From: Escallonia rubra
Taxonomy: Eukaryota > Streptophyta > Magnoliopsida > Escalloniales > Escalloniaceae
Length of the DNA: 64,000 nt
Direction: 5' to 3'
NCBI GenBank assembly: GCA_033065855.1
Contig: JAVXUO010001846.1
Location: 1-64,000 of the forward strand
Part shown: positions 22,641-64,000 of the stretch, one piece after another
How the letters are laid out: each line of letters starts with the position of its first letter
Position numbering within the stretch: position 1 is the first letter of the stretch
Translations under genes and position numbers: made by a program
Notes under the pieces: generated by a model
What the model was told of the DNA's origin: nothing
Databases searched by the model: none
The model's input: only the letters and a program-made list of their open reading frames with translations

Positions 22641-22649
22641 TATATAAGG
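22641..22649 (+). promoter_or_regulatory. TATA box of MLP gene 1
   Basis: TATATAAGG about 100 bp before the ATG at 22750. The corresponding position of gene 2 reads 'gctatgtatcacc' and has no such box. Confidence 0.55.
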
Positions 22650-43899: not shown

Positions 43900-44477
43900 T
43901 GTGCAGTTAGAGATGTCAAAGGGCCGGGCTTGGGCCGGCCCAGCCCAAGCCCATCGGGCCTGCAAACGGGCCGGGCCGGGGCCGGGCCAAGAAAGGGTGA
44001 AAACAGGCCGGGCCGGGCCTGGCGAAGGGAATCCTAGGCCTGGTCCAGGCCCAGGCCCTAAGCCCAATATTTAGGGCCGGGCTTGGGCCGGGCCCGGGCC
44101 CTTTTTTTTTTTTCATGTTATTCAATCTAGTTCGTGCAAATTCAATAAACCACTTCATCAGTTCTATTTTGCACTTCTTTAGGTGATGAGGAACTGAGAG
44201 GGCAGTGAGGGGTGCTGCAGTGATACATCAATATGTTTAGCATCTTATGGTGGTTAATCACCTTGCACGTGAAATGTTTGTATCCATTTGTTGCTTAGGG
44301 AATGTGTTTTCATGCCTCACTATTTTTGTATTCGGTCACTTCTTTACGACACATGTCAAATGCATGTGATTTTGTTGTTCTTCATGAGATCCATGCAGGT
44401 GATTGAAGGCTTGAATGATCTTGTTGCCGATGTTGTGAATCTGTGGACTCTAACATGATTGTTCATAGTTATTGCAG

Positions 44478-44573
44478 GATGGAGATAAACAGATTAATTT
44501 TCAGGGACCAAGCTTTTCAGGGATGGAACCTTCCTACAAGCTTCCTGATAATATTGCGTTGATAACGATCCAA
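44478..44573 (+). pseudogene. Captured alpha-mannosidase (GH38) C-terminal exon
   Basis: A 96-nt exon flanked by ATTGCAG and GTATGC, open in all 32 codons. It contains FQGPSFSGMEPSYKLPDNIA, matching the stretch shortly before the C-terminus of plant lysosomal-type alpha-mannosidases (..LPDNVAIITLQ). GH38 enzymes remove alpha-mannose from N-glycans in vacuole or apoplast. This fragment has no catalytic part and is a passenger in the hAT element. Family assigned from memory of the motif. Confidence 0.75.
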
Positions 44574-44674
44574 GTATGCATATCGAGTAATTACCATATT
44601 GCTTAAGCACCCAAAGAAGGACTTTACATCTAATGGGATGCTTTCCTACTTAAATCTGTCTTTGAGTACTGCAT

Positions 44675-44722
44675 GAGCTTAAAGATGGGAAAGTTCTCCT
44701 TCGATTGGCACACTTGTATGAG
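44675..44722 (+). pseudogene. Captured alpha-mannosidase next exon
   Basis: 48 nt encoding ELKDGKVLLRLAHLYE, which directly follows the previous exon in plant alpha-mannosidases, then a donor-like GTTTGT. The expected AG acceptor reads GCAT, so splicing is probably damaged. The intron between the exons (about 100 bp) is retained, so capture was at the DNA level. Confidence 0.75.
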
Positions 44723-45406
44723 GTTTGTCTTTCGCTCATCAGATCACTTGAAAAACATAGTTCCTACTTTGGTTTTACCTAGTATAGTTTTCAAGTGAAG
44801 TCCACTTCCCATTTAAGCCCACTTGTGCCCATATATGTCATACACCTTTGGAGATATTCTTGGTAGCGTTGTTATTCCTGCCAGACCATTGCATTCTAAT
44901 TTCCAACTGGGGGCTAAACTTGCTTTTCCTCATGAGACTTCTTTTCACTTTGTTGTAGCATTTCTTAATTTATGGTGCTAGTCTTCGGTAGCACATTTTA
45001 GCAGCGGTGGTGTTCCTGTAGGGTTTTCCATAAGCTTATAGGTTATTCTGGTAATTGTTTGTAATTTCGGTTTACACTAAGCTTTTGGCCACACATCTAG
45101 TAGACTTGGTTTCGTTACAGTTCTACTTTGTTAAAAGGGGTGGAAGAAAGGGGGGGGAAAGCTAGATTTTCAAAAAAAAGTGGGGCCAAAAAAGGGCCAA
45201 AAGCGGGCCAGCCGCCGGACCAAACCCGGGCCAGATCCGGGCCACCCGGGCCGGGCCGGGCCATTTTCACTCCATTTCGCGGCCTGGTCCAGGCCCAGGC
45301 CCCCTTTTTTCGGGCCTACACTGTTCATGAAAGGGGCCGGGCCAGCCCGGGCCAAAACGGGCCGGCCCGCGGGCCGCCCGGCCCAAATGACATCTCTATG
45401 TGCAGT

Positions 45407-46150
45407 GGTGGTGCCAAAAACTTTGTATGAGGCGGACACTAGCTACCGTAAAAAGTTGTATTCAAATTAAGCCCAAAAACGAATAACCTTTAGCTGACGA
45501 GTTAACTTGGGAGGGTCAAACTTCCACTGTTAGAATTAACTTCAAATATTAGTGGTTGCTCATTTCATTGATCTGTTCCCCATCCGTCCCTATAAATCCT
45601 AGAGTTAGCCGCAAGTTTTATTTCTATTAACTTTTCTATTTTCTCCCATTTTGACAGAATTGGTAGAACACATCACAAAAAACCATATATTCTGAAAAAT
45701 CATGTGGTAGAGTACCAAGGACTAACAAAAAGCTATACATTCTGGCAATTCAACTTTGACGATGATCTTCTGCTCTACATCATCTTCATTGTAATAGCCT
45801 TATTCATAAAAGGTTGCCACTAAAAGATTTTGTCGCTGTTGTTAAAATTTATAATGACAATCTTTAATCGCTAAAATACATGCAACGACATTCTTACTAC
45901 AACAAAGATACCGTACATCAGAGATGCTGATCCGTTTAACTTAGTTTTACATGTACCCACATTCTTACTACAACAAAGATACCGTACATCAGAGATGCTG
46001 ATCCGTTTAACTTAGTTTTACATGTACCCACATATATCTACCCAAAAAATTGGACAAGATCAACGAAAGAATCTAAAACGATGGCAACAGTATTAATTAT
46101 CTCTTTAGAAAATACCTGGACCATAAGCTATGTATCACCTAGGAGCCGTT
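45407..46150. other. Upstream region of MLP gene 2
   Basis: No gene. Not alignable by eye with unit 1. Contains the 71-bp duplication at 45890-46031 and AT-rich sequence with 'catatatcta' at 46031, a possible distant TATA-like element. Confidence 0.5.
45890..46031. repeat. Perfect 71-bp tandem duplication
   Basis: Two head-to-tail copies (45890-45960 and 45961-46031) that I read as identical, starting 'attcttactacaacaaagat' and ending 'acatgtacccac'. It ends about 210 bp before the ATG of MLP gene 2. Confidence 0.92.
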
Positions 46151-46243
46151 GAGCCAAGTGTTTTTCCCATCTATTGCTCCCAAGTCTTTCCCTGCATAGT
46201 TCAGTAACATCTTTTCATCGTGTTGTTGTTAGAGATTGAGGAG

Positions 46244-47227
46244 ATGGGTCTAACTGGTAAGCTGGTCTCCCAAACCGAGATCAAGTGTGAGGGGGATGTG
46301 ATGCATGAATTATGGGGATCCAAACCGTACCACGTCTCCAACATCAGCCCCCATAATATACAGGGTTGTGCTTTGCATCAAGGTGAATGGGGAACTGCTG
46401 GCTCAATCATTTCCTGGAACTATGTCGTTGGTAAGGCAACAGTTTTACTTCTAAGTTGATTATCGTTACATAACTTTAATGTCAACCTAAGAGATTGCTT
46501 TAAGTTAGATCGATGTCTTATTGAAAATTTCCCCCAAATTCATGAACTTTATGCGCAGTTATAGTTAGCAGTGTACAAACCTAGCTACTACTTTCAAGCT
46601 TCACTTTACGTCACGCATGGCTTTCAAGGCACCAGAAACTTCTTAAATTCTAGCTAAGTGGCGTTTGATCGTTTGACAGCTACTTGCAACTTTCTGCGCT
46701 TCTTGGTTAGTCAACGTACTTCTGTGTATGCAAGTACACTTCTATAGCAACATAAGTGATACTTGGGAGAACTTGCTCTTTTATCCACTTCCATGCGATT
46801 TGTATCAACGAACACATGTGAAAACCATTTTAATTCTTTTTGTTTTTCACAGTTTTACAAATTGATCATGTCCTTTTAGAAGTACATTTCACTTTTTTTC
46901 TCGGTTTTAAGGTTATACGTTTGTGTATTTACTAATCTTGGTATTAAACAACATGCAGACGGGAAAGCAGAGGTTTCTAAACAGATCATAGAAGCCATAG
47001 ACATGGAAAAAAAGACAGTGGTGTACAAGTTGATTGGAGGAGATGCTATGGAGCTATACAAGAGCTTTACTGCCATCCTTCATGTTGACACAAAGAGTGA
47101 AAACAACTTGGTGAGATGGACTTTTGAATATGAGAAGATGAATGAAGGCATTCAGGATCCAACTAATTATATGGACTTTCTTGTTAAAGTCACCAAAGAC
47201 ATTGAGACTCACCATCTCCAGCAGTAA
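46244..47227 (+). CDS. MLP-like protein (major latex protein, Bet v 1 family), gene 2, intact
   Basis: Two exons, join 46244-46430 and 46959-47227; donor GTAAGG, acceptor ACATGCAG, with the intron splitting the Asp codon in DGKAEV. Product 151 residues, the normal MLP length, starting MGLTGKLVSQTEIK. Features: glycine-rich loop GEWGTAG at residues 47-53, SWNYVVDGKAEVSKQIIEAI, MELYKSF, WTFEYEKMNEGIQDP, and a C-terminal helix VKVTKDIETHHLQQ. MLPs are small soluble proteins with a hydrophobic cavity, linked to defence and long-distance ligand transport; the exact ligand is unknown. Polyadenylation-type AATAAA at 47266. The start is chosen because MGLTGKL is the usual family N-terminus; upstream codons lack an ATG. 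No clear TATA box in the usual window, so expression is uncertain. It is the only apparently intact host gene here. Confidence 0.93.
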
Positions 47228-48308
47228 ACACTGTATGCCTTGATGACATGAAGTGCATAGCTTCCAATAAAATTGCTTTGGTTGCAATGATGGCTGTGGT
47301 ATCATGCAGGTTGAATTGCAATAATGGTTGTAGTTTTTGTATTGGCATCAAGTAAAATAAATGCAAGAGCGACACATGTTGTCAGTAGTTGTGTCATCAA
47401 CAGCGTTTATGTTGTATGTTGTTCCTGTATATTTGTCAGCCGAAGTATCCTGATGTTTCCTTATATCTATGTGATTGTGATGTATTTGAAAATAATTTGT
47501 TGTGCATTACTCTTTCCAATACTTAAATTTGCAAATATAGGATTCATACACGAGAGAAGAAAAAACATATATCTTGGACAATTGCAGCCTTGGAGAAAAA
47601 TTATCTCGTAAAATCGTATGATCGGTTAATGCAGTTGTGGTTTAGGAAACAGACTCAATTATGGACAGTTTCTCTTGTTTCTCGAAAGCCATGCAAATTG
47701 TTAAGAACTATCTTTGACTCTCAAGCATAATATTTTCAACTTCAAAATCCTGCGTCGCTAAAAATGTTGTTTCGTGGTAATCTAGCAGGGGTTACCAGGG
47801 TATAGACCGTTTACCTGCTTGGATTATATCAAAGCCCTGGCATGTAGATTGTTCCTATTAGCATATGTTGGCACCACAAAGTCATTTTCACTGTAGATGG
47901 GTGTTTAAGCGATAGAAAGGTTTGGACTGATAGTGCAAAGCTAGAACAAACCTTGGAGTTTGGCTTCTTAAAATACATTATTCATCACGTCCCTTCCAGT
48001 TTGGTAGAGTTCTTCGTATCTTAAAGCCCTATACTTACACAAATCATGCAATTCCATGCCATCAAATTTAATTCTCAAATTGAAATGAAGACCATTAACT
48101 TCACAAACTCGTATTCAAGCATATTAACCTTACGTACATGTTCCAATGCCATTTTTTCTAGCACACCGAGTGAATGTGCAGCTTCTTCTACACCAGCGGA
48201 TTCAAAGGTTGGAGATGAAATACCAAAGGTTACGGATTCAATTGCTAGTCCAGCAAGAGCGTCTGATGGAACAAAACCTATTTGTTAACAACCGATTCTA
48301 TTAACTAC
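47228..48308 (+). repeat. 3' flank of MLP duplication, unit 2
   Basis: Collinear with 33142-34330, including the 3' UTR. It breaks off at 'attaactac', where the Helitron-like insertion starts, and resumes at 54379. Confidence 0.8.
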
Positions 48309-48412
48309 TAGCCCAGAATCCCGTGCCAAGCACGGGACGGTTTATTAACAGTATTTTATTTTAGTAGTTTTGAAATGCATAGTAAAATATATTGGCTCGG
48401 GTTACTGGGCTA

Positions 48413-49701
48413 GTGGTGATAGTCGCTATATTTAGAGACTGCCTTTAGCGACCACTGCCGCGGTCACTAAATCTCAGGTATAAAAACAAATCTTCTGCCT
48501 TAATTAGGCACCCTGCGTCTATTTGTCTCCTCCTCCATCTCTTTCCCTCCCAAAAACCGCTGCCCTCCTCCGCCGTCATCCAAGAGACGACAACGCCATT
48601 TCTGAAAACATGTCGCAATTTGTATCCTTTTCATTCATATATGATAGGGGGTCAAAAAAAACATTCACATCTAAGATTTTGCCCTAATTTTGACCTTCTC
48701 TTTCTCACTTCTCGGAACTGTCACCTCCCCCTCTCCCCCCCCCCCCCTACTTCCATATACCACCCAATCACCGTACATAGCGTGCAGCCGCAAGGCCACC
48801 TATCCACAAAGCCCACGCCATCGCTGCTGTCGGCCTTGGCACGGTGATCCTAATGCCGGTGACCCTCGGGGCGATGAAGATGTTTTTGGATCGAACGTGC
48901 CTTCTTCATCGAGGAATGAAGAAGATGATGACGGGGCTGATTATTCTGCCGACGAGTGATTTAGATAGGGGTTTGGTTTGATTTATGCAATGAATGTTAT
49001 TTTCTTGTTTTGAATTGATCATCGGTACTTAACTGTATGAATTCTATTATTTTAATGCATATGTTAACGTTTATCTATACTTTGATGAATGCGAGTAGCT
49101 GTTTGAATGAATGCGGGACAGGGGGTATCGTTTCAACCGAGGTTAAATCGGTTTTTGGATCGATTGGATTGGATGTGAATTGCTTGTGAATTGATATTAG
49201 TTCTGCGACAGGTTTTGGACAGGTTATTTGACCTGTAATTTTTTTTTTTTTTTTTGCAAAGCCATGTTTTGCGACCGCGATGTGCGGTCACTAAATAAAA
49301 CAAAGCGGTCGCTAATTTTAATATTTAAAAATATTTAGCGACCGCACATAGCGCGGTCGCTAAATTAAATAAGTGCGGTCGCTAAATATTTTTAATATAT
49401 TTCTAAAAAAATTAAAAATAAAATAATATTTTAAAATGTTTAGCCACTGCAATTGTCGGTCGCTAATATATAATATAATTTAATAAAAAAATTAAAAAAA
49501 GAAAAAGTAAAAAGTAAAAATATTTTGTGACCGCCTTATGCGATCGCTAAATTTAGCGACCGAATTTTAAAAGTGGTCGTTAAAATTTAGTGACCTGGCC
49601 TATAGCGACCGCTCTAACGCGGTCGCTAAAACCCTTTAGCGACCGCGTTAACACCTTTAGCGACTGCCAGACGTGGTCGCTAAAGGCACTTTCTTGTAGT
49701 G
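48413..49701 (+). mobile_element. Nested CACTA-type remnant with GCGGTCGCTAA subterminal repeats
   Basis: The right terminus ends ...CACTTTCTTGTAGTG at 49701 (CACTACAAGAAAGTG inverted). 49255-49690 is packed with gcggtcgctaaat/tttagcgaccgc motifs in both orientations. The left side has the matching 'ctttagcgaccac' motif near 48445 but not a clean CACTAC end, so the left border is approximate. A CT-rich leader (48500-48560) and an open stretch ending in an acidic SSSRNEEDDDGADYSADE (to 48959) lie between; no transposase core. Confidence 0.6.
49255..49690. repeat. Subterminal GCGGTCGC repeats
   Basis: At least ten copies of a roughly 13-bp motif (gcggtcgctaaat) in direct and inverted orientation. 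It differs from the GCGACGGA motif of the two large CACTA copies, so this is a separate subfamily. Confidence 0.8.
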
Positions 49702-49717
49702 AAACATGTTTACATAT

Positions 49718-51545
49718 TAGGCTTTGATTTTGACTATTAAAACCTTAATTAGATTGTTATGTAATTCTTGCGTAATATTTGCATACGCATATATGTTTAC
49801 TTTGGTTCCTTTGAACTGTAAATTGCAACAACAATGAGTAAATTGCGTTACGATACCGCTTGACGATGTATAAAAAAAAAGCTTAAAGAACGCAAAAATC
49901 TATCACGGCATTGTAACACAATCTACTCACGGCACTGTAATACAATCTACTCATTGTTCTTTAAACTTACAGTTCAGAAGAACTGAAGCAAACATATATA
50001 CCTATGCCAATAATAAATGGTATACCTATGCAAATAATAAATGCAAATAATAGATGATTTATCTTCAGATATAATAAAGTTTTCAATTTAAGTTTTAGTC
50101 AACATTCATCACAACATAATTAATATCTTTTTAGATTTTATATGCAATATTAAGAATTATAAAAATTAACATAAAATCATAAATGGTATATTGCTAATGC
50201 AAAATTTAGAATGCTTAAGAGTTTAATTACTCACAATAAAAGTACCATAAAAAATAATTCGTTCAAAACTTTTCAACATAAAATTAGTTGAATTTAAGAA
50301 ATGTGTGTTAAGGTTTTATATTTACATTATCTTTTCAATATATCTCGTATAGAATCTGCATACTATGGTATTTCTACATTTAACCATTGCGGGTAAATAG
50401 GATTGCACAAAACCTTAGACTAAGGAAATTATCGACCAAAATTTTTAACCAACGTATTTATCAAATTAGAATCATATTTGAATTTACAGAATTTGAAATA
50501 GTACCTAATTTTTCTTAAATATGAATTCAATATATAATATTCAAATAAAGTCATGATAGGTTAGTATAATGCATAAGGACTATTATTTAAATGTTTACTA
50601 TATTTGCCGATTTAATTAATCACAAAATTAAGGATCCCGTTCAAAATAATGTTTGAAGATCTTTAGCAACACTGATATGTTTAACATTGGTTTTATTACT
50701 CTTTTTATATTAGAAACACAGTGCAATGAGGTGTCATGAGTTATCATTACATTTCTGACCTCAGTTATTAAAAATATTATAGCTCAGGCTCCTGAGTAAG
50801 CTCGAGTAAGCTAATAAAATATTTTAAAAAGTTACAAAAAGTGTATCGATGCATACCACATTTTAAGAAACAAAAAGAGATTAACATCTTATGAAAAAAA
50901 GAAATCTGCTTTTACTAAAATTATAATTGTTGGTAAGAAATTTTTAGTACTTTATTTGTAACCGTTCAAGTAATTTGTCAAGACAATATTATTATTAAGG
51001 TTTTTTAGTGGTCCAACTTGTAACCTTTCAAAACCAATCCCTTAGCTTGAAAAGTTAGGTTAAGATTTCTTTATCTTAGGAATCATATATGTCATAGTCC
51101 ATTCTTATCTTTTTCATGAATCAATGTTTCAAGAAATCACCAACATTAAGATACGAACATGATATCCAATAGAATATTTTTGTGTCTCTTATACACATTT
51201 AAAATTGCAGTCTTAATTAGATGGTCACACAATTATTGTAGAATATTTGCATATATATGTTTACTTTAGTTCCTCTCAACTGTTAGTTCAAATAACAGTG
51301 AGTACATTGTGTTACAGTGTCGTCACTGGATTTTTACGTTCTTAAAGCTTTTATTTTATGTAGCTATATTTTTATGTTCTTTAAACTTCTTTTACATCGT
51401 CAAGCGGTACTGTAACATAATATACTCATTATTCTTACAGTTCAAAAGAACTAAAGCAAACATATATGCGTAGACAAATATTACGCAAGAATTGCATGGC
51501 AATCTAATCAAGGTTTTAATAGTCAAAATCAAAGCTTAATACATA
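49718..51545. repeat. Foldback sequences (one large inverted repeat or two MITEs)
   Basis: 49718-49815 ('ttttgactattaaaacctta', 'cgtaatatttgcatacgcat', 'gtttactttggttcc') matches 51437-51545 in inverted orientation. Shorter related arms lie at 49965-50010 (inverted) and 51217-51300 (direct). Two readings are possible: two diverged 300-bp MITEs sharing long TIRs, or one 1.8-kb foldback with an inserted middle. The sequence between is AT-rich and non-coding. Confidence 0.6.
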
Positions 51546-51740
51546 AATATATGTCTGTAGCATAGAGTTTAAACGTTGTACAATAATTTTTCTAAATTTA
51601 TAAGATTTATAAATATCGTGATAATTATACCACAAATTTTTTAACAATCAATTGTAGTAAAGAGTTTGATTTGTTTTCTAAATCCTTATATATGGAATAT
51701 AACCAGTTTGATGGTCGTGAGGTATTATTTAAAAATGTTG

Positions 51741-51741
51741 A

Positions 51742-51781
<40 letters not shown>
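51741..51781. repeat. (TA)n microsatellite
   Basis: Pure TA run of about 40 bp; similar shorter run at 53335-53363. Confidence 0.9.
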
Positions 51782-51782
<1 letters not shown>

Positions 51783-52181
51783 TATGTATATCATGTATAT
51801 GTCAATATATCTGAATAATGATATTACATTTAACTCAATTAGAATGTTATTTTTTCCCCTTCTAAATCTAATATGTTATTTTGTTTTTTGAGATATGAAT
51901 TTTATATTTACATTAATGAGTGGTTTTAAGAATGCAATAGTCAAGTTTAAGTCATAATAAGTAAGTATAATGATTAGGTTAAGTTCTAAAATGTTTAGAA
52001 TTAATTTTTAAATCATGCAACCCTCATTATTCTTGTGAAATTAATCAAATTTAAAAATAAGGTACCTATCAAAATACAAATCAATTGTTAAAATATGTTT
52101 TTCTAAGTCTTGTAAGTTGTTTAATCTTAATTGTAACATCAATTTTTTTTTTTCTAAATCAAAAGAGTACTATTTTCATTG

Positions 52182-52206
52182 TGTGTGTGTGAGAGAGAGA
52201 GAGACA
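52182..52206. repeat. (GT)n(GA)n microsatellite
   Basis: Compound run; a longer cousin is at 53588-53627. Both sit at equivalent places in the surrounding degenerate repeat units. Confidence 0.85.
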
Positions 52207-52259
52207 AAGAGAGCTTTTATATCCATAGTAGAGAGTAGTTTTGAAGATATAATACTTTT

Positions 52260-53330
52260 AAGGACATAAATATCAAAATAAAGACTTAATAGATTAGTAT
52301 ATTGATTAGGTAGAGTTTTAGAATGATTAAAATGAGTTTTTAAATTAATTTTTTTCTTCTAAATCAAAAGTTTTATATTCATTTTTTATATATATGAGTT
52401 TTTATATTCGTATTAGAGAATAGTTTTGAAGATACCATAGTCAGTATTAAGTTCTAATGAGTTAGTATGATAATAAGATAGAGTTTTAAAATAATTAGAA
52501 TTAGTTTTTAAATTTTAAGGACATAATTGTCAAAAAGAAGTCTTAATAGATTAGTATATCGATTAGGTAGAATTTTAGAATGATTAGAATTAGTTTTCAA
52601 ATTAAATAAGACTCACTAATATAGAAGTTAATTAATCTTAAAATAAGGACTTGATAACATGTCATATAAAGAAGTGATGATGTGTCGCCCAAAGAAGTCT
52701 TGCTTCGCTTATTATATATTTCTTTCCCAAAATCCCGTGCCAAGCACGAGACAATTTATTACCAGTAATTTATTTTAGTATTCTTGAAATGCATACTAAA
52801 ATATCTTGCACAGTTTTATAATTTTGTGGTTATTTCATCAAAGATAATTACTTTAATTTTTGGCTATAACTTTCTTGTAATAAAATAAACTAACCTTTCA
52901 CTTTCTTGTAATTTTATTACTTTAATTTTTGGCTTTAACTCAAATATACTATTTCAAATTCAAAACTTTAGAGTAAGGAAATATTTTAAATCAAAATATT
53001 TAATTCAATTAGAACGTCATTTTTTCCCTTCCAACTCTAATATGTTATTTTTATTCTTTCGATCTATGAATTTTTATATTCACACTAAAGAGAGATTTTA
53101 AGAATACAATAGTCAAAATTAAGTCATAATAAGTTAGTGTATTTGAGTTCTAAAATATTGATATTTAATTTTTAAATTATACAACCGTCATTACCTTTGT
53201 GAAATTAATCAAATTTAAAAATAAGGTGCCTATCGAAATTCAAATCAATTGTTAGATCATTTTTTTCCTTCTAAGTCTCGTAAGCTATTTAATCTTAATT
53301 ATAACATTAATTTTTCTTCTAAATCGAAAG

Positions 53331-53368
<38 letters not shown>

Positions 53369-53587
53369 GAGTGATTTTGAAGATACAATAGTCCATATAA
53401 AGTATTAATAAGTTAGTATAATGATTAGATTTGGTTTTAGAATGATTAGAATCAGTATTTGAATTACATAGGGCTTACAGAAAACCCTTATTACTTATGC
53501 AAAATTAATTAGATATAAAAATAAGGATCCTATGATAAAATATATTAATTATTAAACTTGTTTTTATTCTAAATCTCATAAGTTGTC

Positions 53588-53633
<46 letters not shown>

Positions 53634-54250
53634 TATTCATATTAGAGTGATTTTGAAGATACAATAGTCAATATTAAGTTCTAATAAGTTAGTATAATGA
53701 TTAGGTTGAGTTTTAGAGTGATTAGAATTAGTTTTCAAATTTTATAGGGCTTACAGAAAACCCTCATTACTCCTGCAAAATTATTTAGATATAAAAATAA
53801 GGATCCTATCAAAATTTAAATTAATATTAGATCACGTTTTTATTCTATATCTTATAAGTTATTTTTTGGGTCTATGGATTTTATTTTTCATATTAGAAAA
53901 CACTTTCAACTACATAATTGTCAAAATAAAGTCTTAATAGATTACTATATTGATTAGATAGAGTTTTAGAATGATTAGAATTGGTTTTTATATAATTTTT
54001 TCCTTATAAATTAAAAGTATTATTTTCGTTTTTTAGATATATGAGTTTTTATATTCATATTAGAGAGTAGTTTTAAAGATACAATAGTGAATATTAAGTC
54101 CTAATAAGTTAGTATAATGATAAGGTTGAGTTTGAGAATGATTAGAATTAGTTTTTGAATATTAAGGACATAATTGTAAAAAAGAAGTAGTATATTGATT
54201 AGGTAGAATTTTAGAATGATTAGAGTTAGTTTTAAAATTAAACAAGACAT
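52260..54250. repeat. Degenerate repeat units inside Helitron-like DNA
   Basis: The phrase 'gttttagaatgattagaatt', with small changes, recurs about eight times (for example near 52316, 52568, 53434, 53710, 53960, 54130 and 54210), together with 'taataagttagtataatgat'. Spacing is irregular (80-450 bp). No coding content. Confidence 0.75.
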
Positions 54251-54378
54251 TATAGAAGATAATTAATCTTAAAATAATAATCTGATGACGTGTCAAATAA
54301 AGAAGCGACGATGTGTCGAGGAAAGATGTTATCAATCTTTTTATCGCTTCGCTTATTATATATTATATAGATATAGAT
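52722..54378. mobile_element. Second (right) Helitron-like copy
   Basis: Starts around 'cccaaaatcccgtgccaagc' and shares the following 60 bp with the left end at 48312 (ttattttagta.t.ttgaaatgcata.taaaatat). Ends with the CGCTTCGCTTATTATATA right end. The left copy ends with the same phrase at about 52700-52721. Confidence 0.55.
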
Positions 54379-55300
54379 TTGACTATATTAAACCTTCTAT
54401 AGTCATTAGCACCTTGATAAACTTCCCCTAAACAATTATCAAAACTCTGGTGCAGTTTTAGAAAACTAGGAATGAAAAAGATCTTTCATTTGGGGCCAAG
54501 AATAGACCCAATTGGGTGGCAGACCAATATACCAAACTAATATAATCACGCCCACCATGTTCTCCACACTGCAATTTGAAATGGGAAGTGAAGTGTATCA
54601 AACAATCTGGATTAGGTTTGGTGTAACGAAGTCGTCCTATTCTATGTCCTGGGCCAAACTGCTCTCTAATGATCTCCAGAAAAATTTCTCCATTTACCAA
54701 CATTGGCTGACACTGCTAAGGGTAAGGTTATAAGGCTTAAAAGGTTGAGGTGATGGTGGATATTGCCCATATTGCCCCCCAAAACTCTTAGGGCGTTGCA
54801 AAGTTCAACATGTTCCTTAGAAGCCTAAGCACTTATTGTTCACTTCCAGGCCTAAAACTCTCAAATGTGGGTGAACGCTCCCATAAAAGTCACCATACCC
54901 AGGGTTTGCTTTCCACTGGTCAATGACCCTTGAGTCAGCCTAACCTGCACGTTTTATAGTGGTCCTGATCAACAAATGGATTAAGTTGGTCCTCAGAAAT
55001 TTCCTCTACTCTAACATGGCCTCTAGGTCAGAATCAGCAATCCTAGCCAGATTTGTGCTTGGATTATGGCAAATCGTAGCTTTGTAGCTTGAATTTTACC
55101 TATTAACAATCATTCTTTCATATATATAGCACAGTGGAACCCACAGTGCGTACCAAAAAATGTATCTATTTGTAAAAAAAACTCTTAATTAAATTAATGC
55201 ATGGCTGTGCCTAGATATGATCGATCCAGGTATTTTGGAGCAGTTCCAAATAAAACAGTTTTATATTGAACAAAAGTGCCCGCCGACTTCTGTTAAAGCA
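54379..55300 (+). repeat. Distal flank of MLP duplication, unit 2
   Basis: Matches 34335-35560, with a deletion of about 190 bp relative to unit 1 in the middle (unit 1 35040-35220). Similarity ends in 'gcaatttatgaga' near 55313. No gene. Confidence 0.8.
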
Positions 55301-56463
55301 ATTTATGAGAATTTGAGATTGTTCTCAAGGTTGCTGTTACCTAGTGCTCTAGGACTTTTTGTGCTAATTAACTCATACTTTTTTGTGCTAATTAACTTAT
55401 ACCCCGAGCTTAATCTACTCTTACTGCTAATTAAACCACGTATAAAGCATTGGGAAAGACATGATTACCTTCATAGTAATTCAAACATAAAATTAATTGA
55501 GCTCAAGATTCAAATCACAAAAGATTTGACTCAAGCAAATAAATGGTTAACCGTTTATGACAATAAAATGGGTTTGAACAACAAAGATAAAGACTGTTCA
55601 CTTAAGAGTAAACAGGGTATTTTAAAGTAACTTTGTGTTAGTTTTGTAAGCGGGTTAGTTTTGTACACTGCTTTTAGAAGCCTCATGTCTTTTACATATA
55701 CGTAGACAAAAATTATAGCATTTTGATCTCTCTTGTCTAGCTTTGCCACTTGTAGCATTATGCTTTAATTGAATATTATCCCTCTATCTTAAAGTCTAAT
55801 GTGTTTAGACATGTTTATGTGTTTCTACACATTTTTATCCCCAAAATACCCTCTGAAATATCTCATGAGACAAACTACCCGCCAGTTTTCAGAAATAGAG
55901 CAATATCCTGCCACCCGCTCAAAAGCCACCTCTAAGCGGCGCCATGGTTTCAAAGAAATAATGCTTCTCTTTCGCCAGGCCCTCTCCCTCTCCACGCACA
56001 CGCCGGCGTAGCCTCTATAGGGATTCCTTCTTTCTGCACTTCAAAGTTCTTCCTACAAGACTTCATCCAATTCTTCATCTACAGGTCAGTTTTTGCATAA
56101 CAGAATTGCATTTAATGAATAAATGAACGGAAACACTCTATTCTTGCTTTTAATTATTGTGTTATACATTATGTTCTTCAATATCGTTTATCTATCATGC
56201 ATCCGATCATTCTACAAACATGAGATTGCAACCTCTACCGCCAATGCCACTCCCTCAATCAGCACAAACACATGATCATGATTTACATGTGCGCATGTTT
56301 GACGTACTTCAAAATGTTTAATTCAATTGTACGAACAGACATTCTGGTTTGGATTATCATCTCCAGTTCTTCCTTATGTGTCTCATACATGTCTTCCCAC
56401 CATTACTTCTTAGGCTTCTTGCTTTCGTCCCCTTTTTCCATTGCATGCAAGGTGTTGGAAGAT
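55301..56463. other. Intergenic sequence with a leader-like segment
   Basis: The 137-codon open stretch at 55217-55630 is leucine/lysine-rich, partly duplicated flank, and matches no family I know. 55900-56084 is GC-richer and ends TTCATCTACAG followed by GTCAGT, which resembles a first exon with donor, but no downstream exon was recognised. Confidence 0.4.
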
Positions 56464-57042
56464 ATGCAAATTGCCATATTGTCTTACCCAATCACATAGG
56501 AAAAGGCAAATTTATGAATCATAAGGAAAATTTCATGAGATTAAAAAAGTGTGTTGCTTCTCATTATGCCTCGGATGGTTCATTGAAGACTGAGTATAGG
56601 TTAACTTGTTTAGATGACTAGACTGGACTGAGAAATTTCATGGATTAATTTTTCAACTTGTTTAGGATTCCTTGTAGCTTTTTCTAGAAAAGTAAGATTT
56701 ATAGCCAACAATGACTGCTGATACTACATTGGAAAAAGCTAAAAATATGCAAATTGCCATATTTTCTTACCCAATCACATAGGAAAAAGTCGATTTAGGA
56801 ATCATTAGGAAAATTACATAAGCTTAAAATGTGTGTTGCATCCAATTATGCCTCGGGTGTTTCATTGTAGGCTGAGTATAAGTGAACTTGTTTAGATGAT
56901 TAGACTAGGCTGGGGAATTTCGTGGATTAAATTTTAAACTTGTTTAGGATTCCTTGTTGCTTTTGCTAGAAAAGAAAGATTTTAGGGGGCTGTCGAAATT
57001 TCACTGCCAGCAATGACTGCCAATACTACATTGGAAAAAGTT
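56464..57042. repeat. 283-bp tandem duplication
   Basis: Copy 1 at 56464-56746 and copy 2 from 56747, both starting 'atgcaaattgccatattt/g'. Shared marks: 'cttacccaatcacataggaa', 'tgcctcgg', 'tttaggattccttg', 'actacattggaaaaag'. The copies have diverged moderately. A short open stretch over copy 1 is not preserved in copy 2. Confidence 0.85.
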
Positions 57043-57106
57043 ATAGAAATAACTTCTGGAGACGAGTCGTCTGGAGAATTTAGTCAATTTTGAATTGTTG
57101 GACTAT

Positions 57107-57365
57107 CACCACAAGAAAAGATGGCTTTAGCGACGGACTTTTAGCGATAGAAGGTATTCCGTCGCTAAAAGACCGATTCAACGACGGTATTTATCGTCCG
57201 TATAAATCCGTTGTTAAAAAAGTTTACCAACGGACCATTCCATCGGTAAAAGAATTTGCCAACGGATTTTTACCAACGAACTTTTAACGACGGAAAAACT
57301 GTTAGTAAAATGTCTTTTACCGACGGACTATTAGCGACGGACTTATTCCGTCGCTATAGGTCTGT
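57107..57365 (+). repeat. CACTA copy 2 subterminal repeats
   Basis: Motifs tagcgacggac, ttccgtcgcta, accaacgga and aacgacgg, as in 3673-3998. Confidence 0.75.
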
Positions 57366-57370
57366 CCTTA

Positions 57371-57623
57371 AAACGCAGATCTGCTTTCTTTCTTTTCTTT
57401 CTCCCGTTTCTCTCTCTCTCTCTCACCCACCGGCGTTCTCACCTCCGGCGACCCCCTCTACAGCAACCCACCTCCGGCGACCCCCTCTACGGCAACCCAC
57501 CTCCGGCGACCCCCCTATCTTCCCCCCGACGTCGTGCCACCTCCGGCGGCCGTCACGGCCAGTCTTCAATGACCAGATCGATCTAGCGTAGTCTGCCTAG
57601 ATCTTTGAGCTCCGGCCAACTTC
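57371..57623 (+). promoter_or_regulatory. CACTA copy 2 leader exon with GTAAGT donor
   Basis: CT-rich start, three CTCCGGCGACC repeats, then consensus donor GTAAGT at 57624; equivalent to 4020-4277. Confidence 0.5.
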
Positions 57624-58129
57624 GGTAAGTTTCAAACTGGCTAATAAGCCTACAAAGCTTTTTGTTTGATATGGTTAATGAGATTGTTTGATATGGTTAA
57701 TCGAGAAGGGGATCTCTGATTGGGGTGTACGTCAATGAGATTGTTTGATAAGGTTTTATTGGTTAGTGACATTTTGGATGGTAAGAGTGCTTTAGTGTTA
57801 CTACTCTAATACACCCCCAAACCTCATTTACATGTTCCATAGGGCCTGTTCTTGCAGACTTTGTTCTTGCAGATAGATGTTTGTTCTTGCAGATAGATGT
57901 TTGTTCAATTTCTTTGCTTGAAACTCCAATTCATAATCCCACATTGCATTCCATTTAGATCTAAATATTTTGTTGTTGACTTAGAACAATGGTTCCTAAA
58001 GAACTAACAACTAGCTAAAGTACTTCCCTAAATGTATCGCTGATGATACATATGGCATAGACACCACCCTTAATATTACTCATGCGTTTTATAAGGCTCG
58101 AGAAAAGTGAGCAAGTACACTCAGCTGAC
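57624..58129. other. Intron-like filler, nothing recognised
   Basis: AT-rich sequence between the leader exon and the captured exons. Small direct repeat 'gttcttgcagatagatgttt' near 57865-57905. No gene. Confidence 0.5.
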
Positions 58130-58201
58130 CTGTGCTAAAGCAGCATCTACAAAATCCTGAACACGGTCTTGGACATTGTAGTCAAATAAGTTGATGTCAT
58201 C
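58130..58201 (-). pseudogene. Captured alpha-mannosidase exon Z (minus strand)
   Basis: 72 nt, open, 24 codons, containing FDYNVQDRVQDFVDAALAQ, which follows the EVNDDSPIVQ exon in plant GH38 alpha-mannosidases. Acceptor CTGAAG and donor GTCAGC are intact on the minus strand. Third of three consecutive exons captured in gene order. Confidence 0.8.
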
Positions 58202-58305
58202 CTTCAGTTCAGAAACAAATGTTGTCATTCATTTGGTTTCATAAGTGATGTTTAGGGAAAAAAACCGAGCCCCTCAACATTTTGTTGATTTCCTCAAGTA
58301 GTTAC

Positions 58306-58389
58306 CTGGACAATGGGTGAATCGTCGTTAACTTCAAAATAGAAGCCATTTGGAGGTTCATAAGCCTCAGGGAAAGCACCAGCAAAAGT
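58306..58389 (-). pseudogene. Captured alpha-mannosidase exon Y (minus strand)
   Basis: 84 nt, 28 open codons, TFAGAFPEAYEPPNGFYFEV then NDDSPIVQ, with acceptor TTTGTAG and donor GTAAC. In known plant enzymes this stretch lies shortly after the catalytic nucleophile region. Introns to both neighbours are kept, so the capture was genomic. Confidence 0.85.
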
Positions 58390-58616
58390 CTACAAACAAT
58401 ACATGAAAAAAAGAGGAACTAAGTACCTACAAACCTAAGTTTATGGGTATACCGCTGCTATATAGATGTAAAAGATACAAAAAAGACCAACATGTGCAGA
58501 TGAACCAAGACTCTTGGAACCCCATCAGATAACCTCAAGACTCTAAGAACCCCGCCTTTTTGAAATCCTAGAAGAATTAAGAGTCACTTTGTGACCTTAA
58601 TGGAGAGAGACCATAC

Positions 58617-58791
58617 CTCTGCCCCCAATAGGTACACCTGCACTGCAGAATGTCCAAAGGGATCGATTTGCCAACCAATTCTTGGAGTGATATTGAACTC
58701 GGCTTTAATAAACCGGTGGCCAAGTGTTGTCTGGTCAATCATATCAATGTAATGCGGGGCTGCCTCGTCGTGCATGCACATACCCCCATTT
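58617..58791 (-). pseudogene. Captured alpha-mannosidase exon X with catalytic motif (minus strand)
   Basis: 175 nt, open throughout, with acceptor GGTGCAG and donor GTATGG. Encodes GGMCMHDEAAPHYIDMIDQT, then TLGHRFIKAEFNITPRIGWQ and IDPFGHSAVQVYLLGAE. IDPFGHS contains the aspartate that acts as nucleophile in family GH38. It is a fragment of about a thousand-residue enzyme with no start codon, signal peptide or rest of the domain, so it cannot act as an enzyme by itself. It runs antisense to the CACTA genes. Confidence 0.9.
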
Positions 58792-58974
58792 CTGCACCAG
58801 AAAAAGGAATAATACGTAAACTATGCAAACATACCCATATACCTAAACCCTGAATCTTGGACGAAGATACTCAGTCAGAACCAGGAAACATAATCTGATC
58901 TTCCATCATCACCAACGAATTCATACTATACTAAACATAGCATAATTAACTCAGCGGGTGCAAACATACCCATA
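58792..58974. other. Sequence upstream of captured exons
   Basis: Probably the preceding intron of the captured alpha-mannosidase gene (minus strand) and the transition to the repeat array; no exon recognised. Confidence 0.4.
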
Positions 58975-60125
58975 TACCTAAATTGAACTAATTGAACCCT
59001 AAATTGAATGCCCCAAATCAATCGAACCCTAAATTGAACTAATAGAACCCCCTAATTGAACCCTAAATTGAAGTTATTAAAGCCTAATTAAATCTTAAAT
59101 TGAATGCCCAAATCGAATCGAACCCTAATTAAACTAACTGAACCCCTAATTGAACCCTAAATTGAATGCCCCAAATCAAACGAACCCTAAATTGAACTAA
59201 TAGAACCCCCTAATTGAACCCTAAATTGAAGTAATTGAATCCTAATTAAACCCTAAATTGAATGCCCTAATGGAATTGAACCCTAAATTAAACTAATTGA
59301 ACCCCTAATTGAATGCCCTGATCCAACCGAACCCTAAATTGAAATAATTGAACCCCCTACTTGAACCCTAAATTGAATACCCCAAATCAACCGAACCCTA
59401 AATTGAATCAATTGAACCCCCCCTAATTGAACCCTAAATTGATGTAATTGAACCATAATTAAACCCTAAATTGAATGCCCTAATCGAATTGAACCCTAAA
59501 TTAAACTAATTGAACCCCTAATTGAACACTAAATTGAATGCCCTAATCTAACCGAACCCTAAATTGAACTAATTGAACCCTAAATTGAATGCCCCAAATC
59601 AACCGAACCCTAAATTGAACTAATAGAACCCCATAATTGAACCTTAGATTGAAGTAATTGAACCCTAATTAAATCCTAAATTGAATGCCCTAATCGAATC
59701 GAACCCTAAATTAAATTAATTGGACCCCTAATTGAACCTTAAATTGAATGCCCTAATCCAACCGAACCTTAAATTGAACTAATTGAACCCTAAATTGATT
59801 GCCCCAAATCAACCGAACCCTAAATTCAACTAATAAAACCCCCTAATTGAACCCTAATTTGAAGTTATTGAACCATAATTAAATCCTAAATTGAATGCCC
59901 TAATCGAATTGAACCCTAAATTAAACTAATTGAATGCCCTGATCCAACCGAACCCTAAATTGAAATAATTGAACCCCCTAATTGAATGCCCAAAATCAAC
60001 CGAACCCTAAATTGAATCAATAGAACCCCTTAATTGAACCCTAAATTTCTGTAATTGAACCCTAAATTGAATGCCCTAATCGAACCGAACCCTAAATTAA
60101 ACTAATTGAACCCTAAATTGAAATA
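58975..60125. repeat. 1.15-kb array of CCCTAAATTGAA-type units
   Basis: Roughly fifty short units of the forms 'gaaccctaaattgaa', 'ctaattgaacc' and 'gaatgccctaatc', arranged in longer, imperfect groups of about 70-190 bp ('gaatgccccaaatcaaccga' recurs). Each unit carries the heptamer CCCTAAA, the plant telomere unit, but spaced by other bases. Absent from copy 1. No coding content. Confidence 0.9.
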
Positions 60126-60462
60126 ATTCAAGCGCACCGGATATGTGCATTTTGAACAATTTTTTTCTCATTTGAACATTGATAATTTGTTTCATAATTT
60201 TAGGTTGAACATTGACAATTTTTTTTCTCATTGTGCATTTGAGAATTGTGATTATTGATCTGTGATTTTAGGTTGTTAATTGATGATTTTAGATTGTTAA
60301 TTGTGCATTGAGCATTTGAGATATTGAGATTATTGAAGGAGGATGGGACCCAATTGGATTGAATGTGTGATTTTTGTTAATTTTTATTGCATTGAGCCTT
60401 TGAGAATTGAGAATTAAGATTGTTGACGGAGGATGGGACCCAATTGGATTGAGATACCTGTT

Positions 60463-60925
60463 AGTTAGCGCAGACACGGACACCACGTCTGATCGACGGT
60501 GTCCGACATTTAAAAAATAAATTAACGTATGTCGATGTGTCTGGAGGTGCGTGCCGGTGGGATTCGGACACGTGTCCAAAGGCGTCGGACACGTGTCGGT
60601 ATGTGTCAGACACGTGTCCGGAGGTGTCAGACACGTATCGGACACCATATCGATACCCTATATGAGGTGTCGGAATTGAGGTTGTTGACGGAGGATGAGA
60701 CCCAATTGGATTGAGATACATGTTAGTTAGCGCAGACACGAACACCACGTTTGATCGACGGTGTCCAGCATTTAAAAAATAAATTAACGTATGCCGATGT
60801 GTCTGGAGGTGCGTGTCGGTGGGCGTCGGACACGTGTCCAGAGGCGTCGGACACGCGTCGGTATGTGTCGGACACGTGTCCGGAGGTGTCAGACACGTAT
60901 CGGACACCATATCGACACCCTATAT
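60463..60925. repeat. Two tandem copies of CACGTG-rich repeat
   Basis: Copies start near 60463 and 60714 (period 251 bp) with 'gttagttagcgcagacacg', then 'gatgtgtctggaggtgcgtg', 'cggacacgtgtcc' and 'gacaccatatcga.accctat'. Related to 6462-7170 of copy 1. Open frames on the minus strand are repeat-derived. Confidence 0.85.
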
Positions 60926-61029
60926 GAGGTGTCGGAATTGAGGTTGTTGAATGTGCATTAAATTTAGGTTAGTTAGGTTAATGCGACATTTTTAGCATGC
61001 ACCCCCTGGAATCTAATCGTGGCTCAAGC

Positions 61030-61570
61030 GCTGGCTATAATTAGCCCTAATTAGTCCTGATTAACAATATTTTAGTAAATCAATTAACCCTAATTAGCTC
61101 TAACGAGCCTAATTAGTTTTAATTAACCCTAAGAACCTGATGAAATTCAAATTAGCTGTAATTACCCCAAATTAGCCCAAATGAACCCAATTATGCGCAT
61201 ATTGATTGCAGTTAGCCTAATTAGTCATAATTTGCACTAACATAACCCAATTACGCCTAATTAGCGCTAGTTAGGACTAATCAACACTACTCGGCACCAT
61301 CAAAACCCTAATTAGGACTATATAACCCTAATTAGTCCTAATCAACCCTAATTAGCTATAATTATTCGAAACTAGCCCTCATTAACATTAATTAGCTCTA
61401 ACATAACCCAATTAAGCCTAATTAGCCCTAATTAGGACTAATCATCACTACTCGGCACAATTAAACCCTAATTAGTCATAATCAACCCTAATTAGCTATA
61501 ATTATCCTAAACTAGCCCTCATTTACATTAATTAGCCCTAACATAACTCAATTAAGCCTAATTAGCCTTA
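61030..61570. repeat. Degenerate CCCTAATTAG array, left part
   Basis: Same type as 7300-7940. Interrupted by the hAT element and continued at 62626-62930. Confidence 0.8.
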
Positions 61571-61578
61571 ATTAGTAC

Positions 61579-62617
61579 CAGTGTTATTAAAGGCGCAGGC
61601 GCACCTAAGGCGCAAAAGGTCCCTGGAGCCTAGGCGCAAGGCGCAAGGCGCAAGGCGTAGGCGCGCGCCTTTTCGAAGCGAGGCGCAATATTAAAATAAA
61701 TAAATAATAATAATAATAATAATACACAAAAACAATAAATTATGTTTAAAAAAAACACATGACAATTAACAAATCAGATTAAATGCACATATATCAATTG
61801 CCAATTCAATTCAAATTAATTTCAATTTCAATTTCAATCTCAAACTCAATTCAATTCATATTATGCAATCTTATCTGCCTGGACAGTGTATGAATTCAAA
61901 CTCAATTTCAATTTCAATTGGACAGTGTATGAAGAAAAAAGAAAAGATTGCATTTTTCTTTTTTCTTCTTGCCTTTTCTTTTTTCTTCATACACTGTCCA
62001 GTTGGACAGTGTATGAAGAAAAAAGAAAAGGCAGGAACTGGTCACCCGAGACTCCGAGAGAGAGAGAGCAGCAATGGAGAGGACAGCAATGGCGGTGCCG
62101 CGGTGGCTGAACTCCGAAGCAGCGCTAGTGGCTGGAGCAGCTGACGGCCGGCGAAGAGGGGAGATGCGGCGGCGACGACCGGCGAAGAGGGGAGATGCGA
62201 CGGCGACGACCGACGAAGAAGGGAGATGCACGGCGACGACCGGAGATTCGGCGAAGAGGGGAGGGAGATCAAGCCACGCGGACAAAGATCGTGGTTACGG
62301 TGGACAGAAAGAGAGATCCATTTGGGCTTTAGCCTTTAAAAAGTGAAGGACTTTTACCCTCAATGAACTGGTATCTGTGGTAAGGATTCTCTGCTTCTCG
62401 ATGGGTGGTGTTGATGGTGGAGGGGAGGGAGATGCGACTGGAGAAGGCCTGGATTTGCGCCTCCACCACCGCTGCGCGCCTCGCGCCCAGGCGCCTAGGC
62501 TCCCTAGGCGCGCGCCTTCTTGAACGCGCTGCGCCTAGGCCTAGGCGAGGCATTGAGTGCGAGCCTGAGCGCGCCTAGCGCCTAGGCGCACGCCTAGGCG
62601 CGCTTTTTATAACACTG
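61579..62617. mobile_element. hAT non-autonomous element with CCTAGGCGC-rich ends
   Basis: 1039 bp. Left end CAGTGTTATTAAAGGCGC; right end reverse complement CAGTGTTATAAAAAGCGCGC. A perfect 8-bp target duplication ATTAGTAC lies at 61571-61578 and 62618-62625. Subterminal regions are stacked GGCGC/CCTAGGCGC repeats. No transposase. The interior contains a perfect 29-bp inverted repeat (61971-62032) and a GGCGA-rich stretch (62130-62270). Distinct family from the element at 43908. Confidence 0.9.
61971..62032. repeat. Perfect 29-bp inverted repeat, 4-nt loop
   Basis: Left arm 61971-61999 (GCCTTTTCTTTTTTCTTCAT...), right arm 62004-62032, loop AGTT. Would form a strong hairpin in RNA from either strand. 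A further partial copy of the right arm lies at 61919-61945. Confidence 0.9.
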
Positions 62618-62625
62618 ATTAGTAC

Positions 62626-62930
62626 TAATCAGCACTACTTGACACAATTAAACCCTAATTAGGACTACATAACTCTAATTAGTCCTAATCAACCCTAGTC
62701 AGCTATAATCATCCGAAACTATCCCTCATTAACATTAATTAGCCATAACATAACCCATTTAAACTAATTGAACCCTAATTAGGACTAATCAGCACTACTC
62801 GGCACAATTAAACCCTAATTTGGACTATATAACCCTAATTAGTCCTAATCAACCCTAATCAGCTATAATTAATAATCGTAATTAACCCTAATAACCCAGT
62901 TAGCCCTAATTAGCCCTTGTACATCCCATA
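62626..62930. repeat. Degenerate CCCTAATTAG array, right part
   Basis: Continuation of the array at 61030-61570 beyond the hAT element. Confidence 0.75.
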
Positions 62931-62959
62931 ATTACTCCACGGCTTCAGAGATGGTTCAA

Positions 62960-63424
62960 TTACTCGTTGTTTACAAACCCTGCCTTCTTTATATTAATTG
63001 TGGTTTTGAGAAGTCCATTGGCAACGAGATGGTTCAACTCGTTGCCAACGAGTTCTATTTAATGTGGAATTGGTAACATATGCAACGATCATTCTGTAGT
63101 TTTGATATTTCGAAAAGATTCTTGCATATCTTATCAATTTCTGAACACATGCATGCATAGAAACCCTTAGTTCCCGTTCAAAGGTACTCATTACAAAGTA
63201 ATGCCTTGTAATGAGCCTTTGGATGTCCAGTTTGTACAGTTTGGAAAAGCTAATTGTTTATAAAACAGTATTTTGACTCATGCTTTATGTTCTATGTCGT
63301 GGATATTTGGTACACGTTCTCGTGTGTTCCTCCGGGTGCATACAGATCTGGTGTTCTAACATCCGTCAAAACTTCCTGAGCAAGGTTAGATGAATGTTAG
63401 AACATTTAATTGATGTGGTGTACT
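62960..63424. other. Conserved block, copy 2
   Basis: Counterpart of 7941-8432; ends at 'gtgtacttg', the left deletion edge. Confidence 0.6.
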
Positions 63425-63915: not shown

Positions 63916-64000
63916 GTTAATGTTTTTTCTTTCTATCCTCAATGTCTGTTTCATTAATTAATGCCCTAACATATCGTTAAACCACTATTTTTGTAGGCCT

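What the first reader, a model, noticed from the sequence alone, without database searches (positions are those of the whole stretch)
43908..58791. Two unrelated transposon superfamilies carry different parts of a GH38 alpha-mannosidase gene in one window
A hAT element (43908-45398) holds two C-terminal exons on the plus strand, and a CACTA element (57107 onward) holds three consecutive exons around the catalytic nucleophile on the minus strand. Both retain introns, so both captured genomic DNA. Independent capture of the same gene family by two superfamilies 13 kb apart is unlikely by chance. It suggests a hotspot gene, a former local alpha-mannosidase copy broken up by transposons, or a selected outcome such as small-RNA control of the parent gene.
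Basis: partly seen in the sequence, partly recalled or inferred. Interest (0 to 1): 0.75.

Follow-up and report, generated by a model that had tools for sequence, protein, structure and literature searches.

The report
Two transposons carrying mannosidase gene pieces
Two jumping elements in what looks like a plant genome each picked up a piece of a different copy of a sugar-trimming enzyme gene and later landed near each other; each half is a known kind of gene capture, and their closeness looks like coincidence.

Summary
Window 43908-45398 is a non-autonomous hAT with perfect 8-bp target duplications, carrying C-terminal exons of a GH38 alpha-mannosidase. A CACTA element starting at 57107 (ending outside the window, at C1649:64985) carries N-terminal exons, including the catalytic-nucleophile exon, on the minus strand. 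Introns are retained in both.

The donors differ. The hAT piece matches a tandem gene pair on contig C2219 (9 mismatches in 994 sites). The CACTA piece matches a paralogue on C1843 (K2P 6.6% here, 5.7-8.0% over nine copies). Each piece is shared, with the same breakpoints, by sister transposons elsewhere: 8 distinct hAT insertions and at least 10 CACTA insertions. In the hit lists no other contig carries both. So these are two separate Pack-type captures, amplified, then juxtaposed once; not remains of a local gene.

Extras: the hAT family carries other cargo too (one YchF-type gene fragment). The CACTA capture junction survives at 35 sites, 25 of them without reported GH38 exons. A repeat on C2723 holds ~240 bp of the hAT-type piece. 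I found no sign of coding function. Small-RNA control was not testable.

The parts
43900..43907 (.). left 8-bp target-site duplication TGTGCAGT of the hAT
43908..45398 (+). non-autonomous (Pack-type) hAT element, 1,491 bp
   Evidence: TIRs and perfect 8-bp TSD; arms shared with a transposase-encoding hAT element
43908..44122 (+). left hAT arm, G+C-rich, shared with elements that carry other interiors
44123..45134 (+). GH38 alpha-mannosidase genomic DNA matching contig C2219 (C2219:468933-470076 and its near-identical tandem copy)
44394..44395 (+). point of the ~135-bp deletion that removed most of one captured exon; same junction in C2723
44478..44573 (+). captured exon B, open, both splice sites present
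44675..44722 (+). captured exon C, open; acceptor CAG of the donor is CAT here
45133..45398 (+). right hAT arm
45399..45406 (.). right 8-bp target-site duplication TGTGCAGT
57107..64000 (+). CACTA element; continues beyond the window to C1649:64985 (7,879 bp in all), TSD TAT/TAT
57640..57879 (+). linker present in 14 contigs, all with or beside the GH38-type CACTA; its first ~133 bp also occurs elsewhere (two such contigs, C2699 and C3181, match the CACTA 5' end too), and ~77 bp at C1718 (92%)
57880..58961 (-). GH38 alpha-mannosidase genomic DNA matching the C1843 paralogue (C1843:227552-228738); ~160 donor bases including the start of exon 2 are absent
58130..58201 (-). captured exon E4
58306..58389 (-). 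captured exon E3
58493..58544 (-). 3' remnant of captured exon E2, 5' part and acceptor lost
58617..58790 (-). captured exon E1 with the block GWQIDPFGHS (catalytic nucleophile, recalled)
58936..58978 (+). capture-junction scar (GH38 DNA joined to filler); found at 35 genomic sites
58959..58982 (-). 24-bp filler at the capture junction, identical to 58824-58847 inside the captured piece

Best explanation
These are two independent Pack-type gene captures by DNA transposons that came to lie 11.7 kb apart by chance. In the hAT family a member lost its transposase interior and was filled with about 1.15 kb of genomic DNA from a GH38 gene on C2219 (shown: arms, breakpoints, donor match). The product then transposed to at least 8 places (shown: different flanks, 8-bp TSDs); the window copy lacks an exon through a deletion. 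Separately, and earlier judging by divergence, a CACTA element took up about 1.2 kb of the C1843 paralogue and multiplied (shown: shared breakpoints, 10 different 5' flanks). In another branch, seen at 25 sites, most of the GH38 piece is replaced by other DNA beside the same junction (shown for the 8 read; direction inferred). The likely mechanism is repair of an internal break by copying from an ectopic template (inferred from 4-bp and 2-bp microhomology at the hAT junctions and a templated filler at the CACTA junction). The fragments most likely have no coding function and move as passengers (inferred).
For: Different donors: CACTA piece, gene locus C1843 at 95% and 86%; C2219 gene loci 70-88%, C2913 77-79%; hAT piece, C2219 genes at 97-99%; C1843 70%. 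Shared breakpoints and copies. Distinct insertions. The hit lists share no contig with both GH38-bearing elements other than C1649. hAT arm shared with C707, which encodes Dimer_Tnp_hAT (E=1.6e-23) and hAT-like RNase-H. Same arms with other cargo, one with YchF-GTPase_C E=2e-10. Scar at 35 sites, 0 in the reversed-pattern control; 26 bp of GH38 plus the 24-bp filler in 8 of 8 scar-only copies read. Truncated exon 2 and stops. Published precedent that hAT and CACTA both form Pack-TYPE elements: PMC8903248 (passages and sections 9 and 10 read).
Against: A rough uniform-placement estimate gives only ~0.005 expected hAT-CACTA pairs this close (8 x 13 sites, 13.2 kb, 566 Mb); it was made after the fact and ignores shared insertion preferences. 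The captured exons together are less diverged from the donor than the introns in 9 of 9 copies (4.6% against 7.4% in the window copy), and E1 least of all (2 of 174 in the window copy, 2-8 of 174 over the nine, against 8 of 58 in the E2 remnant). Constraint on the donor side may explain this, but it was not modelled, so some constraint on E1 is not excluded. Complete gene models of the donors were not built, and expression is unknown.
Confidence: 0.92

Rival explanations
1. Both pieces are remnants of one former local alpha-mannosidase gene broken up by transposon insertions.
For: Both are GH38 fragments, from different parts of the gene, within 15 kb.
Against: They match different paralogues with different divergence; each lies wholly between transposon arms and has the same breakpoints in copies on other contigs; orientations are opposite (+ and -).
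Confidence: 0.01
2. The captured exons act as sources of small RNAs that silence the parent GH38 genes, and are kept for that.
For: Exons B and C of the hAT share every 21-mer with the C2219 donor (76 of 76 and 28 of 28); CACTA E1 shares 113 of 154 with C1843. A review (PMC13317346, passages only) reports captured sequences in maize Helitrons, Pack-MULEs and Sireviruses acting as siRNA reservoirs.
Against: Homology is automatic after any recent capture; the other CACTA exons share few 21-mers (3 of 34, 20 of 64, 4 of 52); 25 of the 35 scar sites are without reported GH38 exons; no small-RNA data here; the two elements would target different parents; the review passage does not name hAT or CACTA.
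Confidence: 0.04
3. The GH38 genes are a capture hotspot, taken up preferentially by several transposon families.
For: Two superfamilies, plus a repeat-rich patch on C2723, hold GH38 DNA.
Against: The C2723 piece carries the window hAT's deletion junction and hAT-specific letters, so it is probably second-hand or a hAT remnant, not a third capture from the gene. A 3.1-kb middle stretch of the C2219 gene finds GH38 gene loci and one unexamined 70% stretch at C2219:616619 (12 of 12 candidates scored). The hAT family also captured another gene.
Confidence: 0.05

Closest known systems
Pack-hAT elements (Pack-TYPE transposons, PMC8903248)
   Same: Non-autonomous hAT with TIRs and 8-bp TSD carrying genomic gene fragments with introns; same arms as a transposase-encoding hAT member; several interiors in one family.
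   Different: Nothing categorical. No hAT terminal motif was seen in the ~4.1 kb held for each of the two C2219 gene loci, so the neighbouring-insertion model of that paper was not supported here, nor excluded.
Pack-CACTA elements (Arabidopsis, Catoni et al. 2019, described in PMC8903248 and PMC13317346; original not read)
   Same: CACTA termini, 3-bp TSD, host exons and introns inside, amplified copies.
   Different: 7.9 kb with long internal repeat blocks; capture junction with templated filler that survives as a scar in a branch without the exons.
Soybean CACTA element with gene fragments (Zabala and Vodkin 2007; seen only as a title in the reference list of PMC13317346)
   Same: CACTA carrying host gene fragments (from the title; more is recalled).
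   Different: Different genes (recalled); expression and splicing not examined here.

Membership tests
hAT superfamily (non-autonomous) | 8-bp target-site duplication | tested here: met
   TGTGCAGT both sides; of 8 distinct GH38-bearing insertions 6 have a perfect 8-bp TSD, 1 has one mismatch (C2335), 1 lacks its 5' terminal motif (C362)
hAT superfamily (non-autonomous) | termini shared with an element encoding hAT transposase | tested here: met
   left arm 97.7% identical to the C707 element (TSD GATGGCCG), which encodes Dimer_Tnp_hAT and hAT-like RNase-H; its right arm is less alike (72.7-83%)
CACTA (En/Spm) superfamily | TIR beginning CACTA and 3-bp TSD | tested here: met
   window copy starts CACCACAAGAAAA; 6 of the 9 other copies with a seen 5' end start CACTACAAG, 3 start CACCACAAG; 3' end TTTTCTTGTAGTG and TSD TAT/TAT read for the window copy, and the same 3' motif in its overlapping contig C1650
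CACTA (En/Spm) superfamily | CACTA transposase in the family | tested here: inconclusive
   two ORFs of 173 and 118 aa in the overlapping contig gave no Pfam match at E<=0.001 (the 173-aa ORF also none at 0.01); other family members were not searched
Pack-TYPE transposon | host gene DNA inside TIRs and the unit mobile as a whole | tested here: met
Pack-TYPE transposon | capture by fusion of two neighbouring insertions | tested here: inconclusive
   no TIR motif found in the held donor stretches (C2219, C1843); microhomology and filler favour template copying
trans-silencing small-RNA locus | small RNAs from the captured exons acting on the parent gene | not testable with these tools
   no small-RNA or expression data

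The most novel reading that the evidence does not exclude
The transposon families pass cargo on in series: host gene to hAT, hAT to a third repeat, and within CACTA one cargo replacing another at a retained junction, so that GH38 paralogues have been carried by three mobile vehicles, possibly feeding small RNAs against two parent genes.
Probability: 0.05. Interest if true: 0.5.

Novelty: new member of a known kind. Interest (0 to 1): 0.25.

Why it matters
It shows how a striking coincidence in one window resolves into two known processes once sister copies and donors are found. The by-products are useful: a hAT family with several interiors on the same arms, a CACTA capture whose junction scar marks relatives that no longer carry the exons, and a possible second-hand capture.

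Tried and rejected
Rejected: local broken gene; one common donor; more than one capture event per family (breakpoints are shared); counting C1650 as an independent copy (C1649 and C1650 overlap from window 45399 onward; 100% over the 1,406 bp read at the start, 98.7-99.3% over 56600-67616; the stretch between was not compared); counting C2741 separately from C2854 (identical left flank over 800 bp, same TSD).

Led nowhere: the C1843 region 231908-235153 as a hotspot probe returned 46 matches, 45 of them outside C1843 and nearly all to one ~280-bp dispersed repeat, with 40 of 1,927 candidates scored, so it says nothing about GH38. No inverted end was found for the C2723 repeat in the held stretch. 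The origin of the ~560 bp that replaces GH38 in the scar-only CACTA branch was not identified. A Mei2-type RRM_2 hit in hAT copy C1736 is below the Pfam cut-off (E=0.0022, 18.6 bits against 25) and is left as a hint. A literature search for alpha-mannosidase, transposon, gene fragments and CACTA together returned 0 papers.

Not done: complete donor gene models, a tree of all GH38 paralogues, identification of the organism, a genome-wide census of captures.
Full report
What was checked. I searched that genome with both captured pieces, with two GH38 Pfam families, with transposon arms, with donor gene parts, with a stretch of C2723 and with a junction pattern.

The hAT. Element 43908-45398 has TIRs beginning TAGAGATGTCA and a perfect 8-bp TSD TGTGCAGT. 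The captured stretch 44123-45134 aligns to the C-terminal part of GH38 genes on C2219 (two tandem copies with 1 difference in 1,130 compared sites), introns included; the window copy differs from the nearer donor at 9 of 994 sites. The whole-genome search with this stretch scored 14 of 14 candidates: the window, eight sibling contigs (C2854, C2772, C2335, C312, C2741, C362, C1822, C285), the two C2219 genes, C2723, and weaker matches at C1843 (70%) and C2219:457310 (85% over 71 bp). C2854 and C2741 have the same TSD and a left flank identical over 800 bp (right flank 98.7%), so they are one insertion. That leaves 8 distinct insertions including the window's: 6 with perfect TSDs, 1 with a mismatch, 1 without its 5' terminal motif. 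The eight siblings differ from each other at 0-6 of about 1,133 sites and from the window copy at 3-8 of about 998, so the spread is recent. Among these nine contigs only the window copy lacks ~135 bp that hold most of the exon IQGKYYVRIDPLGEGAKWRRSFGQEIYSPFLLAFTEQ.

The hAT family. The left arm alone gives 2,208 first-look candidates, of which only 40 were scored. Of these 40, 3 are GH38 copies (C1649, C2335, C285); I read the cargo side of 26 of the other 37. By similarity of the ~800 bp next to the arm, 19 of the 26 form one group, 3 another, 2 another and 2 are single. A 253-aa frame in one of the 19 (C707) is hAT transposase (Dimer_Tnp_hAT E=1.6e-23, hAT-like_RNase-H E=1.3e-10), and C707 is bounded by the TSD GATGGCCG. 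The group of two (C670, C1173) carries a YchF-GTPase_C fragment (E=2e-10, tested for C670; a second frame of the same cargo had no Pfam match). So gene cargo is not peculiar to GH38 in this family. At the left junction arm and donor share CAAT; at the right junction the C707 arm and donor share AA.

The CACTA. It runs from 57107 to C1649:64985 with TSD TAT/TAT. The captured piece 57880-58961 (minus strand) aligns to C1843:227552-228738, with ~160 donor bases absent, including the start of exon 2. K2P to that donor is 6.6% for the window copy and 5.7-8.0% over the nine copies other than C1650; among those nine copies 0.4-5.4%. The search scored 19 of 19 candidates: ten contigs with the full query (C1649, C1650, C1162, C2991, C1034, C1090, C2572, C1035, C2381, C2814), partial copies on C2418, C2872 and C590, and the GH38 genes. 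A linker search adds C2197, at a contig end. C1650 overlaps C1649 and is counted as the same locus. Ten copies with a visible 5' flank (window, C1162, C1034, C1090, C2572, C2381, C2814, C2418, C2872, C590) show no mutual flank match above 60 bp at E 1e-5 in up to 800 bp. C2991, C1035 and C2197 begin inside the element, so their independence is unknown. The element's 5' end alone gives 1,942 first-look candidates, 40 scored, so the CACTA family is large and the GH38 type a small part of it.

The scar. At the capture junction of the window lies a 24-bp filler identical to a stretch inside the captured piece; the same filler stands at the junction in 9 of 9 fetched sister loci, C1650 included. 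A 43-base pattern over the junction occurs at 35 sites, with 0 in the reversed control; the GH38 copies C2814, C2418 and C590 are not among them, so 35 is a lower bound. Ten of the 35 are GH38-bearing copies or the C2872 deletion copy; 25 are not in the GH38 hit list. I read 8 of those 25 (L100-L107): 8 of 8 keep 26 bp of the GH38 piece plus the 24-bp filler and no longer GH38 match, and they resemble each other over about 1.4 kb at 92-99%, with about 560 bp of other DNA in place of GH38 in the copies inspected. Because in GH38 copies the scar is continuous with more donor sequence, the GH38 form is probably the older one (inference).

Coding capacity. Each of the four donor exons has an open frame. 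Exon 2 lacks its 5' part in 9 of 9 copies, and the majority form of its remnant has stops in the donor frame; relative to the majority codon 27 nonsynonymous and 12 synonymous differences were counted among the nine copies (some, as in exon 2 of C1034, probably the older state), pN/pS 0.71. Against the donor the ratio is 0.40-0.56, which includes constraint on the donor lineage. Exon divergence is below intron divergence in 9 of 9 copies. E1 is the least diverged exon: 2 of 174 in the window copy and 2-8 of 174 over the nine, against 8 of 58, 3 of 84 and 5 of 72 for E2, E3 and E4 in the window copy. I see no clear evidence for selection on the fragments, but the test is weak and E1 remains a small puzzle.

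C2723. It holds ~240 bp of the hAT-type GH38 piece with the same deletion junction, between stretches of a moderately repeated family (one search scored 40 of 1,177 candidates). It shares letters with the hAT copies rather than the donor but not a letter private to the window copy, so it was probably taken from, or is left over from, a hAT copy of the window's lineage (inference). A 15-base match to the hAT's right terminus about 680 bp away, without a hAT arm, leaves open that it is a scrambled hAT remnant.

Coincidence. In the hit lists no contig other than C1649 carries both the hAT-GH38 and the CACTA-GH38. With 8 and 13 sites the uniform expectation of a pair within 13.2 kb is 0.005; this is a post-hoc figure for one of many possible coincidences and treats the three contig-end copies as separate.

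Literature. PMC8903248 (passages and sections 9 and 10 read) reports Pack-TYPE elements in all main TIR superfamilies, including CACTA and hAT, and elements with DNA from several loci. PMC13317346 (passages read) reviews capture mechanisms and siRNA effects. Other papers were seen as search listings only. Searches; I saw no report of GH38 capture in them, and I made no other search for one.

Verdict. Observation confirmed with corrections; interpretation partly supported; Pack-hAT and Pack-CACTA captures of known kind, in what is most likely chance proximity.

Noticed in passing
61579-62617: A nested element inside the CACTA: inverted ends CAGTGTTAT..., perfect 8-bp flanking duplication ATTAGTAC on both sides, so hAT-like by structure.
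   Followed up: partly
46880-47224: Bet v 1 type coding stretch (Pfam Bet_v_1 E=3.6e-23) just beside the hAT; C1650:837-1498, which lies in the part shared with the window, also matches window 22647-23335 (88.9% over 691 bp).
   Followed up: no
45399 onward: Contigs C1649 and C1650 overlap; C1650 begins with 94 bases that by eye resemble a hAT arm, ending exactly at the hAT's right end, so the assembly breaks there.
   Followed up: partly
L059 (C2723:134667-134946): About 240 bp of GH38 DNA with the window hAT's deletion junction among stretches of another repeat, and a 15-base hAT end about 680 bp away.
   Followed up: partly
L074 and L078 (C670, C1173): Same hAT arms with a YchF-type gene fragment as cargo.
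   Followed up: partly
L100-L107: CACTA branch with the GH38 junction scar but ~560 bp of unidentified DNA in place of the exons.
   Followed up: partly
58617-58790: Captured exon E1 differs from its donor at only 2 of 174 bases, far less than the rest of the captured piece.
   Followed up: partly
60411-60934: Two tandem 262-bp units, 94% alike, within the CACTA.
   Followed up: no
49688-49876 and 51387-51568: Inverted repeat pairs, 80-84% complementary with ~1.5-1.6 kb between, MITE-like or foldback.
   Followed up: no
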